Below the pieces are notes generated by a model. It was not told the DNA's origin, searched no databases, and saw only the letters and a program-made list of their open reading frames with translations. Position numbers and translations under genes: made by a program. This document shows, piece after piece, positions 13,194-17,648 of a DNA stretch of 64,000 nt. Source of the stretch: Mycobacteroides immunogenum (GTDB lineage: Bacteria; Actinomycetota; Actinomycetes; Mycobacteriales; Mycobacteriaceae); contig NZ_CP011530.1 of the NCBI RefSeq assembly GCF_001605725.1, forward strand, positions 3,658,001 through 3,722,000, read 5' to 3'. Position 1 is the first letter of the stretch. Every line of letters begins with the position of its first letter.

Positions 13194-13742
13194 TCAGAAG
13201 ACGATGCTGTTGCCGTCTTCTCGGAGAACGAACCCGTGGTTACCGCCCGTGGTATCGAGGCACGCGGTCACGCCTTCTTCTGCCGCACAAGTTATTGGAC
13301 CGTACTGGATTTTCTTTCCGGCAGGCAATAGTGGGGTATTCGACTGGTATTCGCCGCAACGACCCTTAAATCCGCCAAATGAATAGGGCGCGCCCGGCCC
13401 TGTCCAATTGATTCTCTTAATAGAACACGATTCGGGCGGATTTGACGCCGGTACTTGATCATCGGGAACGCCAGGAATTTCACCACTACAGCTAAGACGG
13501 GCAGGAGTACCGCCCGAGATAACAAAGCCACATCCATATCTACCGCCAGGGAGGGTAAATCCTACGGAATCACCGTTGGCGCGACCACCATGTTGGATAT
13601 AGGCACCTGGATCCACCGGAGCAAAGGAATCCATGTTCGGGAATCCTGGTGGCGGTTCAGCCAGCGCTGGAGCTGCAAATCCGAAGAGACTGACCGCTCC
13701 GCCGATAGCGATAGCACCAATAGATTGTTTGATACTCATCAT
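13194..13742 (-). CDS. Secreted protein downstream of large surface protein
   Basis: This 182-residue protein has a clear signal peptide with cleavage near ALA-EPPPGFPN. The mature part has six cysteines, and its PPGFP start and C-terminal HGFVL motif show that it is a paralogue of the 5713-6207 product. The gene starts 26 bp after the stop of the 1076-residue membrane protein gene, so it is cotranscribed with it. Base composition here is clearly richer in A+T than the surrounding genome. It may be a partner, or an exported immunity-like factor, for the C-terminal module of the upstream protein, but no direct evidence shows this. Confidence 0.75.
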   Translation of the reverse strand: MMSIKQSIGAIAIGGAVSLFGFAAPALAEPPPGFPNMDSFAPVDPGAYIQHGGRANGDSVGFTLPGGRYGCGFVISGGTPARLSCSGEIPGVPDDQVPASNPPESCSIKRINWTGPGAPYSFGGFKGRCGEYQSNTPLLPAGKKIQYGPITCAAEEGVTACLDTTGGNHGFVLREDGNSIVF

Positions 13743-13768
13743 GTCGTTCGGTCGCCTTTCACGCGAAG

Positions 13769-16700
13769 CTATGGTGTGGGAGGTTTTTGTATGAGGATAC
13801 TTAGCGTAGAAGTCCAGGTTTCTGGATGGTAGCCTGCCGGGTCCGCTTCATTGAATGGCCAAGCACTCATACCGGTAGCAACATTGATGATGTTGGATCC
13901 CGCTGGGCCCGGCGTAACGGCACTGGCAGTTGGCCCGTAGACACTATTTACCGTGGCAAGAGCGTTTGGATTTGGCGTATTGTCACCTGCGACCAAGTAC
14001 GTCCAGTCTGGATTCAGCAGCTGTTGGGGCGTCCATGCGGCGGCTCCGTATATGCCGCCATTGATTGGATTCATGTTGGCATCTAGTAACAGCAGACCGC
14101 CACCAGGAAGCGACAAGATCTGATTTTCGCGATCGCCGCCACCTGCGATATCGCCTATCTTGGTCAGATGATTGATCCAGTCATTAGGCTTACTCGAATC
14201 AACTGGTGCTGATTGCCATATAGAGCGAGGAGCGTTGGAGCCCCATCCGTCATTCCCGACAACCACCATAGTGTTACTAATTGGGTCGTATGCACCGCTG
14301 CTCTGAGATCCTGGCGTTTGACCGATTAATACTGGAGAGCTGGGATTACTCAGATCGTACACTGAAGTATGGGGTGAAATAAAGTTCCAAGGATTCTTGG
14401 CTAATTCCCCATCAGTTTCGGAGTACTTCCTTATGCTGAACATTCCGTAGGGACGATCGTTTTGGCCCAACGCATACCCCATCGGAAGTGCGCGCTCACC
14501 TGGTTTGTTAATCGGGTTATCCACTCCGTTCAGTTGCGTTGTGCCGTGCTTCGGGTCACCGGTAAACGATAGATTTTTGCCCGGCACCTTGGTCAACAAA
14601 TCGACTTTATCGCGCGATGTTTGTTGCGGCGCGGTCATTCCCGATATTGAAAATGTCGGAGGCGGCGCCTCCGGCGACGCCGGGTCGGTCGGCGACTGCT
14701 TCAAATCCGCTGCAGCCGCCGTACCTTCGGGAACTTCGCCGCTCATCAATTCGATGGGCTGAGCGTCAGCAGCGTTGGCGGCACTGTCCGCAGGACCCGA
14801 CATCGCTTCAGCCGTCCCCCCGCCATCCGGAATACCACCTGAGCCCATGCTGCTCACCGTGTTGACCGCACCAGCACCCTGGGAAGTCAGCTGGGCGCCT
14901 TGCCCAACGAGATCAGTGACTTGCGAAGCCTGGTCGTTGATTTGCGTGAGCTGCTGCATCTGCGGTTTCAGTTGTGGGTTGGCGTCGCCGACCGCCTGGG
15001 CAGCCTGATCGGCTTCCTTCTGAGCGGTTTTCACGATCTGACTGCCCGCGTTGACGGCATCCGCGGTGCCCTGGATGCCTTGGGACACGCCTTGCACCAA
15101 CGTGATCGCGTCCTGCGGATTCACCGCCCCGGACTGCGCCGACGACGCCAACGAAGCACCAGCCTGCGCCGCCGAACCAAAGCCCTGCGCTGCCTGCCCT
15201 GACGATTCGCCGATCTGCTGCCCCGACTGCACGTAAGTCTGAATATCGCCCGGAAGCCCTTGCGCTGCTTGGGATGCATCCTGACCAAACGCCTGCGTGT
15301 CCGGACCCTGCTCATCTTGCTTACGCCGCCGCGTGGAAGCCGCACCCAATAACAACGCTGTCAGATCATTGTCACCGGACTGCTTGTCGCGATCCTGCTG
15401 GTCCTTGTCGTCCTTCTTCTTGTCCTTCGACGGAAATTTCGGCAACTGCTGCTGCTTCTGATTCTGCTTGCTCTGCTGCAGCTGCTTGGTCAGATCATCG
15501 ATGCGCTGACGATCCTGACCGGACTGTTGCTGCTGATCTTGCAGCTGGCGAGTGAGATCATCAACGCGCTGCTGATCAGATTGTTGCGGCGGCTGCTGGC
15601 TTAGATCCTGCTGCGGCGGCTGGTTCTGCGCAGGCTGCTGTTGCGGCGCGCTTTGATTGGCTTGCCCGCCTTGCGATCCCGTGTTCGTGCCCGGGTTGGC
15701 TTGCCCACCGTTATAGTCAGGATTCGGCGCACCAGGCCCTTGAGTGTACGGGGTGGCACTTTGATAATCCGGGATTTGGCTGCCGTGTTGAGGTGTCTGC
15801 CAGCCCTGCTGAGCCTGCTGCGCGCTTTGGCCACTGGTGCTTTGGCTCACCGCCGGGGACTGGGTGTTGTAAATCGAAATCGAACCGTTTTGATCCAGCG
15901 GCGGCTGGTTGTTGAAACCGCTCTGATAATCGGGCATCTGATTCGGCATCTGCGGCGGCTGAAACTGCGAAGCATCAGGCCCATAGGAGTTCGACCCATT
16001 AGAGCCACCCCCACAATCAGGCGGACACTGCGCATGCGCCTGCGGCACCGTCGCCGGACTAAACCAGCCCAAACCCAAACCCCCAGCCGAAAACATCAAC
16101 AACGCAACAACACCCGAGGTCGCGGCAGCCTTGTTCGAGGCATCAGTGGCCCACTTCCACAGACCCGCAAGACCTTTCCACCACCCCAGATTGGACCCGA
16201 TCGCCCACAACAAGACCACGACGATCGCAGCGACAGCAGGCAACACATCCGGGCCCACGATCCACACATACAGCCGCGGCGCGATCCCGGCGGTTAACAG
16301 CACCAGGCCCAAACCACCGCCAACAAGGGCAGCCACCAGACCCGGATGCCACAACCCTTCCGGGGCCCGCCGCTTACCCGCCGCCCGATCACGCTCGATG
16401 AGCAGACCCGAATCCGTGAGCACCTCCGTGACCAACCCGGTCAGATATCGGCCGCCGGTGAACAGCGCAGCTCCGGCCAGCACCGCCACCAGCATCTGGC
16501 CGATCCCCAGCGCAAGCGACCATTGACTTTCCCCGGTCGCATTCCGCCACCAGCTGGCGTAACCACCGCGGAACGTCCACCACATGCCCAGCGCCCCAAC
16601 AACCACCGAGGCAGCCGCCACAACCGCCAACACCGGCTCCGCCAAGCGTTCCTTGGCCCCATCAAACAGCGCGGCGATTACCGGCCGCGCACCCCACATC

Positions 16701-16999
16701 GCGAGCTTGATCCCACCACCGAGCGCGGTCAGCGCGAACAACAACAACCCGGACCAGCAGATCAGAGCAGCAGCGCTATCACCATCGCGGTACAAGCCAT
16801 GAAGTAAAGCGATGCCACCGATCGCGGCAATGCATCCCGCAGCGAAGGCTGCAAGCCGCCTTCCCAGATCACCCCCAGCGGTAATCCCAGTTTCAAGATC
16901 ACCCCTGAGCAACCCTTGAGAAGTCTGCGCAGAACCTGTCAGATCACGGCGATTACCGTTCACTTCCACAGATTCAACCGACCGCGCATACCCCGACAC
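13769..16999 (-). CDS. Large modular membrane-surface protein, 1076 residues
   Basis: GTG start after GGAGGCGAT. The first 320 residues hold about seven hydrophobic helices; the last ends in VPQAHA-Q near residue 322, which resembles a signal-peptidase site. Next come a Gln/Pro/Asn-rich low-complexity stretch (about 325-480), a coiled coil with a repeated R-x-DDLT-x-QLQ unit (about 480-520), a lysine-rich patch, and an Ala/Gln-rich helical region (about 600-760). The final 290 residues are rich in Gly, Asn, Pro and Trp and look like an extracellular beta-rich, possibly propeller, domain. G+C drops sharply from about 14640 onward, so the C-terminal module appears to be of different origin from the membrane part. 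The function is unknown. The layout recalls polymorphic surface or toxin proteins with exchangeable tips. Confidence 0.75.
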   Translation of the reverse strand: MSGYARSVESVEVNGNRRDLTGSAQTSQGLLRGDLETGITAGGDLGRRLAAFAAGCIAAIGGIALLHGLYRDGDSAAALICWSGLLLFALTALGGGIKLAMWGARPVIAALFDGAKERLAEPVLAVVAAASVVVGALGMWWTFRGGYASWWRNATGESQWSLALGIGQMLVAVLAGAALFTGGRYLTGLVTEVLTDSGLLIERDRAAGKRRAPEGLWHPGLVAALVGGGLGLVLLTAGIAPRLYVWIVGPDVLPAVAAIVVVLLWAIGSNLGWWKGLAGLWKWATDASNKAAATSGVVALLMFSAGGLGLGWFSPATVPQAHAQCPPDCGGGSNGSNSYGPDASQFQPPQMPNQMPDYQSGFNNQPPLDQNGSISIYNTQSPAVSQSTSGQSAQQAQQGWQTPQHGSQIPDYQSATPYTQGPGAPNPDYNGGQANPGTNTGSQGGQANQSAPQQQPAQNQPPQQDLSQQPPQQSDQQRVDDLTRQLQDQQQQSGQDRQRIDDLTKQLQQSKQNQKQQQLPKFPSKDKKKDDKDQQDRDKQSGDNDLTALLLGAASTRRRKQDEQGPDTQAFGQDASQAAQGLPGDIQTYVQSGQQIGESSGQAAQGFGSAAQAGASLASSAQSGAVNPQDAITLVQGVSQGIQGTADAVNAGSQIVKTAQKEADQAAQAVGDANPQLKPQMQQLTQINDQASQVTDLVGQGAQLTSQGAGAVNTVSSMGSGGIPDGGGTAEAMSGPADSAANAADAQPIELMSGEVPEGTAAAADLKQSPTDPASPEAPPPTFSISGMTAPQQTSRDKVDLLTKVPGKNLSFTGDPKHGTTQLNGVDNPINKPGERALPMGYALGQNDRPYGMFSIRKYSETDGELAKNPWNFISPHTSVYDLSNPSSPVLIGQTPGSQSSGAYDPISNTMVVVGNDGWGSNAPRSIWQSAPVDSSKPNDWINHLTKIGDIAGGGDRENQILSLPGGGLLLLDANMNPINGGIYGAAAWTPQQLLNPDWTYLVAGDNTPNPNALATVNSVYGPTASAVTPGPAGSNIINVATGMSAWPFNEADPAGYHPETWTSTLSILIQKPPTP

Positions 17000-17204: not shown

Positions 17205-17648
17205 GTGGCCGTGACGGCGACCGACGACCGCAGTGACCTGTCGGCGTACTGGCGGCTCAAGTTCGATTTCTACGACCGCTACGGCACGAGATTCACACCG
17301 CAAGCTGTGGCCGCCGCTCGGGCGCGCCCCTTCGCAACGAGGATGCGCTCGGCCATCAACCTACCCGCGCTATTCTTCGGCGCGATCTACTTCATCACAA
17401 AAGGGATGTGGCGCAAGGCGATAACGTTGACCCTGTTCAACGTAGCCTTCGGAGTTGTTCTCTACCTGACGTTTCCAGCCCTGGGGCTCGGTGGGTTCCC
17501 GGCCAACGGTGCGCTCTACATGATCCTGGCCGGGCCGGCCTACTATCGCCACCGGGTACTCGACAGCCGATCATGGAATCCACTCGACGGCATCGGCTGG
17601 CGCTTCGATCGCGAAATGCGGGAAGCCTGGAAGCGGCGCCGCGCGTAG
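17205..17648 (+). CDS. DUF2628 family small membrane protein
   Basis: This 147-residue protein has a polar N-terminus (LSAYWRLKFDFYDRYGTRFT) typical of DUF2628, two central hydrophobic segments (about 45-95) and a basic C-terminal end rich in arginine. The role is unknown. The start may be the GTG at 17205 or the one at 17211. It converges on nrdE and shares its terminator. The 205 bp upstream, back to the divergent surface-protein gene, hold the promoters of both genes. Confidence 0.75.
   Translation: MAVTATDDRSDLSAYWRLKFDFYDRYGTRFTPQAVAAARARPFATRMRSAINLPALFFGAIYFITKGMWRKAITLTLFNVAFGVVLYLTFPALGLGGFPANGALYMILAGPAYYRHRVLDSRSWNPLDGIGWRFDREMREAWKRRRA

What the first reader, a model, noticed from the sequence alone, without database searches (positions are those of the whole stretch)
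13194..16999. Seven-helix surface protein with a compositionally foreign C-terminal module and a cotranscribed secreted partner
The 1076-residue protein combines seven membrane helices, a signal-peptidase-like site after the last one, a Gln/Pro-rich spacer, a repeated coiled coil and a 290-residue extracellular module. G+C falls sharply at about 14640, exactly where that module starts, and stays low through the secreted 182-residue gene 26 bp downstream. Module plus following gene appear to have moved together, as in polymorphic toxin/immunity or phase-variable surface systems. The anchor is not one of the standard toxin-delivery types I know.
Basis: partly seen in the sequence, partly recalled or inferred. 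Interest (0 to 1): 0.72.

Follow-up and report, generated by a model that had tools for sequence, protein, structure and literature searches.

The report
Swappable mycobacterial toxin on membrane anchor
Two neighbouring genes look like a bacterial weapon and its antidote: a membrane-anchored carrier protein, shared by fast-growing mycobacteria related to M. abscessus, bears an exchangeable toxin end (here probably an enzyme that cuts the mycobacterial cell wall) followed by a gene for a matching protective protein.

Summary
In detail: seven hydrophobic segments, a conserved signal-peptidase-like site, a Gln/Pro-rich spacer, a C-terminal module, and a G+C drop at codon 781 (62.4 to 51.5%) that continues through the 182-aa secreted gene. 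It is a polymorphic toxin/immunity cassette of Mycobacteroides. Residues ~91-720 are conserved, while 133 of 134 examined long proteins sort into about 20 kinds of C-terminus, including Tox-REase-5, Tox-REase-7, GH-E, papain-fold, NS-nuclease, SLT and GH19 domains, several with known immunity families downstream. Between the same two flanks a sister genome has another module and partner, and a second genome has neither. The window's module recurs on five kinds of N-terminus, usually with the same partner family beside it. Its predicted fold matches endo-D-arabinanases best, other propellers close behind. The partner family matches EatI, solved with the DUF4185-type protein EatA. Best reading: a D-arabinan-attacking toxin with a secreted immunity protein. 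The carrier matches no known delivery domain. Related carriers often lie behind an MspA-type porin and an uncharacterised secreted protein, suggesting an undescribed export route, not shown.

The parts
13769..16999 (-). Polymorphic-toxin gene, 1076 aa (7-TM anchor, spacer, exchangeable C-terminal module)
16070..16855 (-). Seven hydrophobic segments, residues 49-310
   Evidence: Kyte-Doolittle; conserved block in alignment A6
16031..16039 (-). Signal-peptidase-like A-H-A site, residues 321-323, after TM7
   Evidence: A-[HR]-A in 134 of 134 long proteins
15560..16030 (-). Gln/Pro-rich spacer, residues 324-480; its first ~130 aa are shared with short signal-peptide forms
   Evidence: alignment A1; PHROG 30921 (5e-25) and 35557 (2.4e-23), both of unknown function
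14840..15559 (-). Coiled-coil repeats and conserved stalk, residues 481-720
14660..14839 (-). Junction, residues 721-780, where conservation decays; contains PIELMSG at 748-754
   Evidence: mean identity to the window in blocks 691-720, 721-750, 751-780: 0.66, 0.33, 0.15
13772..14659 (-). Exchangeable module, residues 781-1076, predicted propeller fold, endo-D-arabinanase-like; candidate residues D800, D815, E958
13194..13742 (-). 182-aa secreted partner (hydrophobic signal ending ALA-28), EatI-family, predicted immunity protein

Best explanation
The locus is one cassette of a polymorphic toxin/immunity family of Mycobacteroides. The N-terminal ~780 residues are a carrier: seven membrane helices whose last helix ends in a signal-peptidase site, then a Gln/Pro-rich spacer and a stalk that place the C-terminal module outside the membrane. 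The C-terminal ~296 residues are an exchangeable toxin with a propeller, GH183/EatA-like fold, predicted to cut the D-arabinan of arabinogalactan or lipoarabinomannan of competing mycobacteria. The 182-aa gene makes the cognate exported immunity protein of the EatI family, which protects the producer and its kin in the same compartment. Module and immunity gene are exchanged together, probably by recombination in the stalk/junction. Shown here: conserved carrier, variable C-termini, linked partners, cassette exchange between the same flanks, fold similarity, partner homology to EatI. Inferred: export and cleavage, enzymatic activity and substrate, inhibition by the partner, use against other bacteria. 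Unknown: how the toxin leaves the mycomembrane and reaches a target.
Against: No sequence-level GH183/DUF4185 hit for the window module. hhalign of module versus DUF4185 is weak (probability 22%; 10.5%, score 29.8 against 14.5 for a reversed control) and did not align the two aspartates. The window partner alone finds no PDB relative. The partner family is much wider than the module (268 of 297 genomes against 55), so many members have other roles or partners. Nine of 59 module places show no partner in the visible (truncated) rows, and eight are convergent rather than co-directional. The distant module homologue L005 has no partner. No experimental data on this locus.
Confidence: 0.8

Rival explanations
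1. The platform and linked variation are real, but this module is not an arabinanase: it is another propeller glycan hydrolase, a lectin-like binder or an inactive relative.
Against: The first three Foldseek hits in a library of 350,542 chains are D-arabinanase chains; the partner family matches EatI and also follows true DUF4185 toxins; two aspartates in a D-L...G-D spacing and a Glu are invariant in both module alignments.
Confidence: 0.25
2. A surface or wall-remodelling enzyme family with mosaic domains, used by the cell on its own envelope; the downstream gene is a regulator or chaperone.
For: Several C-termini are wall hydrolases (SLT, GH19, amidases, arabinanase-like); DUF4185 genes are common in mycobacteria (19 of 26 genomes; PMC10115798, passages).
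Against: The same carrier bears nuclease- and deamidase-type toxin domains with classical immunity genes; cassettes occur on prophages and plasmids and are exchanged between fixed flanks.
Confidence: 0.07
3. A host-directed effector (macrophage or amoeba) rather than an antibacterial toxin.
For: Mycobacteroides includes opportunistic pathogens; prophage WXG100 toxins of this clade have been discussed as virulence factors (PMC8092301, PMC10654092, passages).
Against: An arabinan- or peptidoglycan-cutting module has no obvious host substrate; immunity genes are needed only against self or kin bacteria; a displaced toxin/partner pair is typical of antibacterial arrays.
Confidence: 0.1
4. A phage lysis enzyme carried over into the chromosome.
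For: Relatives occur in prophages and some bear endolysin-like domains.
Against: In prophiGD12-2 the spacer gene lies beside, and separate from, annotated lysin A, lysin B and holin genes; in the other three prophage stretches viewed no lysin is annotated next to it. The protein has its own export signal and partner gene.
Confidence: 0.02

Closest known systems
EatA/EatI (PDB 9myt, 9mxm, 9mz5; names from the PDB molecule field)
   Same: The partner family profile matches EatI; EatA matches the DUF4185 part of the own-genome WXG-type protein L192; the window module's predicted fold is arabinanase-like.
   Different: The window module is not detectably homologous to EatA by sequence and rides on a 7-TM carrier. 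I found no paper on EatA/EatI, so its tested function is not cited here.
PEST1-3, phage-encoded ESX-secreted toxins of the M. abscessus-chelonae clade (PMC8092301, PMC10654092)
   Same: Same hosts, variable C-terminal toxin plus immunity gene, mobile elements, cassette exchange.
   Different: PEST toxins have WXG100-type N-termini and WXG100 partner genes for ESX export; the window carrier has seven TM helices, a signal-peptidase-like site and a spacer, and no WXG100 hit.
PrsW-linked polymorphic toxins (Zhang et al. 2012, PMC3482391, passages)
   Same: Multi-TM N-terminus linked to variable toxins, also in actinobacteria.
   Different: PrsW is a membrane peptidase; no PrsW or other Pfam hit on the carrier at E up to 1.
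GH183 endo-D-arabinanases AraH2 / EndoMA1 (PMC10115798, PMC10509167, passages)
   Same: Top structural hits of the module model.
   Different: Not on a swappable carrier; sequence link weak.

Membership tests
Polymorphic toxin system | Conserved N-terminal part with different C-terminal toxin domains | tested here: met
Polymorphic toxin system | Immunity gene directly downstream, varying with the toxin | tested here: met
   Imm52, YezG-like, ankyrin, and sub-threshold Imm35 and SUKH; EatI-family partner for the window module; protection itself not testable
Polymorphic toxin system | Recombining or displaced cassettes | tested here: met
   orphan CHAP-like piece (91.7%/108 aa) plus partner (96.7%/150 aa) downstream of another toxin in L051; replacement between the same flanks in G050
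Polymorphic toxin system | One of the known trafficking domains (WXG/LXG, Rhs, CdiA, VgrG/PAAR, PrsW, MuF, PVC) | tested here: not met
   no Pfam or NCBIfam hit at E up to 1 and no PADLOC hit at E up to 0.01 on the window protein
PEST (WXG100/ESX) toxins | N-terminal WXG100-type helical domain and WXG100 partner gene | tested here: not met
   no WXG100 match at E up to 1; no small WXG100-like gene recognised by eye among the neighbouring ORFs
GH183 (DUF4185) endo-D-arabinanase | Propeller fold matching GH183 catalytic-domain structures over most of the module | tested here: met
GH183 (DUF4185) endo-D-arabinanase | Family-level sequence match | tested here: not met
   no Pfam hit for the window at E up to 1; only a sub-threshold 0.042 in relative L035
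GH183 (DUF4185) endo-D-arabinanase | Catalytic Asp/Asp plus third Glu | tested here: inconclusive
   D20-L21...G34-D35 and E178 of the module are invariant in A3 and A5, like D12-L13...G32-D33 and E242 in the DUF4185 alignment A7, but hhalign did not align the aspartates
GH183 (DUF4185) endo-D-arabinanase | Cleaves D-arabinan | not testable with these tools
   needs biochemistry
EatI immunity family | Sequence homology to EatI | tested here: met
   profile of 12 partners including the window protein: 9mz5_C 1.3e-29, 9myt_A 8.9e-28; the window protein alone finds nothing at E up to 1

The most novel reading that the evidence does not exclude
Mycobacteria have a dedicated, undescribed toxin export route that is neither ESX nor any known polymorphic-toxin pathway. 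A Sec-exported spacer (from a cleavable signal peptide or the 7-TM carrier), a ~410-aa secreted protein and an MspA-family mycomembrane porin carry swappable toxins out of the cell, with toxins for different envelope layers (peptidoglycan, arabinan, possibly mycolate/lipid via a cutinase-like end), for membranes (glycine-zipper-like ends, by eye) and for the cytoplasm. Basis: the gene order MspA, ~410-aa gene, spacer toxin, partner at several loci. Twenty of 27 counted places of the ~410-aa gene have a spacer hit within 2.5 kb downstream on the same strand. All 13 genomes with a 7-TM hit (of 396 searched) also have the ~410-aa gene, which is found in 23 of 392. The window locus itself has no MspA or ~410-aa neighbour; its genome keeps a ~410-aa gene elsewhere.
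Probability: 0.3. Interest if true: 0.93.

Novelty: new variant of a known kind. Interest (0 to 1): 0.82.

Why it matters
How mycobacteria fight each other, and how any protein toxin crosses the mycomembrane, are open questions. The papers on this clade that I saw describe WXG100/ESX toxins. This locus points to a second, widespread family (537 relatives of the carrier; prophages, plasmids and chromosomes). Its members now carry scattered names such as 'YIP1 family', 'methyl-accepting chemotaxis protein' or 'hypothetical protein', and, where the end is recognised, 'putative toxin' or 'GH-E family nuclease'. It links D-arabinan, a wall polymer typical of mycobacteria and their relatives, to a toxin/immunity pair, and it suggests a testable outer-membrane partner, an MspA-type porin. 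It would also supply a large set of enzymes acting on mycobacterial envelope layers together with candidate natural inhibitors.

Tried and rejected
Rejected: phage lysin; conjugation or T4SS membrane protein (recalled resemblance only, no Pfam support); anti-phage defence (no PADLOC hit). AF2 of the 7-TM part failed (pLDDT 37.6, pTM 0.25), so no fold claim is made for it; a PDB sequence search with its profile gave only one hit at 0.11, a ribosomal protein. Module profile versus PDB sequences gave only one hit at 0.6, unrelated. Module versus DUF4185 profiles: weak, but collinear and above a reversed control. In VIA EatA chains do not appear, which excludes nothing.

Counts and dropped rows. 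One search used 59 of the 72 module rows; the 13 weakest or fragmentary were left out, among them eight distant homologues (L005 and seven like it). The partner table was cut, so the 9 'none' are an upper bound. One search used 27 of the 63 rows: strong rows of the 13 genomes searched with A1. Left out were rows of other genomes, weak or partial rows, and a second G417 copy found in two pieces. The 120 listed of 537 proteins are redundant (many M. abscessus strains), so cluster sizes do not measure prevalence. Cluster numbers depend on thresholds; with the last 120 or 150 aa even the window module is split (window, L008, L053), while low-complexity ends (L055, P0059, P0115, P0118) may be one kind. 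One of 134 proteins (P0075) had no C-terminal part. In G132, G128, G209, G282 and G230 only the nrdE flank was seen in the stretch fetched, so 'same site' with both flanks is shown for G050 and G187 only.

Labels given by eye: CHAP-like for L028 (Pfam only Amidase_6 at 0.026), WXG100-like for P0003, L041 and L192, glycine-zipper ends, lipoprotein and signal-peptide labels, diverged spacers in L215-L219.

Literature absence: searches in the PMC open library; no bioRxiv held; subscription papers missing. Seen: passages of PMC8092301, PMC10654092 (plus section 8 part 1), PMC9934374, PMC9308005, PMC3482391, PMC10115798, PMC10509167; other papers only as search listings. The species of the window genome is not established; I recall that M. 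immunogenum has a genome of this size, not tested.
Full report
1. What is in the window. The two genes are as described: 13769-16999(-), 1076 aa, and 13194-13742(-), 182 aa, separated by 26 bp. Seven hydrophobic segments precede A321-H322-A323|Q324-C. The best G+C changepoint is codon 781 (window 14656), 62.4% to 51.5%; the 182-aa gene is 54.1%, and the lowest 870-bp windows of the 64 kb lie here. Neither protein hits Pfam or NCBIfam at E up to 1, nor PADLOC; the spacer hits two PHROG families of unknown function.

2. Conserved carrier, exchanged ends. The own genome has a second full-length copy (59%) and shorter proteins sharing only the spacer. Eight of 100 genomes searched, the own one included, have matches. 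A scan of named genomes with the spacer alignment gave 36 loci, all in records titled Mycobacteroides or Mycobacterium sp.. Thirteen other long proteins agree with the window at 0.64-0.96 mean identity per 30-residue block from residue 91 to 720 (0.32-0.55 over the first 90 residues); identity then falls to 0.33 and 0.15 and stays at 0.04-0.18. The large protein database holds 537 relatives of residues 1-780. The 120 listed, the 13 and the window sort into 20 BLAST clusters by C-terminal part, one protein lacking such a part. With only the last 120 aa there are 23-26 clusters, a count that splits some related ends. Long and short forms together, including prophage copies, give 35-42 clusters among 101 distinct proteins.

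3. Many ends are known toxin domains, with immunity genes behind. On the long carrier: Tox-REase-5 (6e-14) followed by Imm52 (4.5e-17); papain-fold glutamine amidase (5.5e-11) followed by Imm35 (2.6e-5, below Pfam's cut-off); Endonuclea_NS_2 (4.5e-17) followed by SUKH (5e-5, below cut-off); another NS_2 (2e-22) followed by a YezG-like immunity protein (7e-5); Tox-REase-7 (1e-13) with a weak HEAT match (0.0019, below cut-off) behind; GH-E (1e-9) with an unknown gene and then an ankyrin protein; SLT (9e-6), GH19 (8e-14) and Amidase_6 (1e-21), whose next genes look exported, lipoprotein-like or membrane-anchored. Tox-REase-5/Imm52, Tox-PL1/Imm35 and Tox-REase-7/ImmHEAT are pairings listed by Zhang et al. 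2012 (PMC3482391, passages). By a crude hydropathy rule, partners of five of six nuclease- or deamidase-type long toxins look cytosolic; the Imm52 gene of L052 is the exception.

4. Cassette exchange. The sister genome G050 has the same neighbours on both sides and a 75%-identical carrier, but a CHAP-like end (by eye) and another 155-aa secreted partner; nucleotide homology is lost between window 13141 and 14797. G187 has both flanks and no carrier between them. In five more genomes only the nrdE flank was recovered. Beside it lie a carrier with a papain-fold end and a 189-aa gene (G132; Pfam 9.9e-9), an interrupted carrier with another end (G128), a WXG100-type cassette (G209), a carrier remnant (G282) and small orphan genes (G230). 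In CBMA 271 the CHAP-like piece (91.7%/108 aa) and its partner (96.7%/150 aa) lie displaced behind a Tox-REase-7 cassette. Two short-form genes of G050 share 97.7% over 258 aa and nothing significant beyond.

6. Mobility. Carrier or spacer matches occur in 20 of 50,697 phage records (16 of them only over about 73 residues of the spacer), 3 of 72,556 plasmid records and 111 viral-contig stretches. prophiGD12-2 has separate lysin genes and, near them, a spacer protein annotated metallopeptidase followed by a 'metalloproteinase inhibitor'. In prophiGD43A-3 the spacer gene and those after it are transcribed against their neighbours. The integrase beside the own-genome copy L008 is identical over 378 aa to that beside the M. 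franklinii copy L043.

7. A possible export route. Divergent 7-TM/spacer proteins with glycine-zipper-like ends (by eye), and several short-form toxins, lie behind a ~410-aa secreted protein (no Pfam hit above cut-off) and, at several loci, an MspA-family porin (PF09203, 1.9e-36 in L209; also L030, L208 by Pfam and L210, L068, L074, L076 by BLAST). Twenty of 27 counted places of the ~410-aa gene have a spacer hit downstream. All 13 genomes with a 7-TM hit (of 396) have that gene, against 23 of 392 overall. In five of five further loci from four other genomes it precedes a protein that looks, by eye, like a signal peptide plus diverged spacer with its own end. Two of these ends and their following genes are homologous to own-genome cassettes L010 and L012. 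The co-occurrence is not independent of phylogeny, and the window locus lacks these neighbours.

8. What is known. The papers on this clade whose passages I saw describe WXG100/ESX toxins (PEST1-3). EatA/EatI is known to me only from PDB molecule names. I found no description of the 7-TM or spacer carrier. The carrier therefore looks like a new delivery variant of a known kind of system, and the arabinanase-type toxin a further member of a kind that others have begun to solve.

Noticed in passing
window 17205-17648: A DUF2628 gene sits between the toxin gene and nrdE; homologues sit in other toxin loci (78% in L045, 35-39% in L054, L201, L202), so it may be an orphan accessory or immunity gene of earlier cassettes.
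   Followed up: partly
L192 (own genome C1:14000-20000): A small WXG-like gene, a 515-aa WXG-type DUF4185 protein matching PDB EatA, and two tandem EatI-like partners: an ESX-type relative of the window pair in the same genome.
   Followed up: yes
L010 12144-13861 and L012 15247-17518 (own genome): Two short-form spacer toxins with other ends (one DUF2599) and their own following genes; both pairs have homologues in other mycobacteria.
   Followed up: partly
L068 6707-8641; L213 4694-6544: Short-form spacer protein L068 with a cutinase-like alpha/beta hydrolase end (Abhydrolase_8, 6e-47) behind MspA and the ~410-aa gene; L213 has the same layout (its end was not scanned). Possibly a mycolate or lipid-attacking toxin.
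   Followed up: no
window 14738-14758; L011; P0004; P0006; P0008: A short junction motif like PIELxxGxVPxGT precedes the modules on both the 7-TM and the DUF1883 platforms (by eye); it may be a recombination or processing point.
   Followed up: no
L005 (own genome C1:4126666-4130271): A 587-aa ORF joining a Maf-like N-terminal part (by eye) to a distant module homologue without partner; similarly long module matches occur in seven related genomes, possibly a domesticated relative.
   Followed up: no
L207, L208, L209, L211: Divergent 7-TM/spacer proteins with glycine-zipper-like C-termini; in L207-L209 small hydrophobic genes follow, resembling membrane-active toxins and their immunity proteins, outside as well as inside Mycobacteroides.
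   Followed up: partly
L204 8763-9305: A 180-aa gene near the nrdE site of G282 ends like the EatI family (by eye) without a visible module, a possible orphan immunity gene.
   Followed up: no
L212 3572-5671 (own genome): The ~410-aa secreted gene is followed directly by a lipoprotein-like gene; in G132 (L213) the same interval holds a toxin cassette, so the own genome seems to have an empty toxin slot there.
   Followed up: partly
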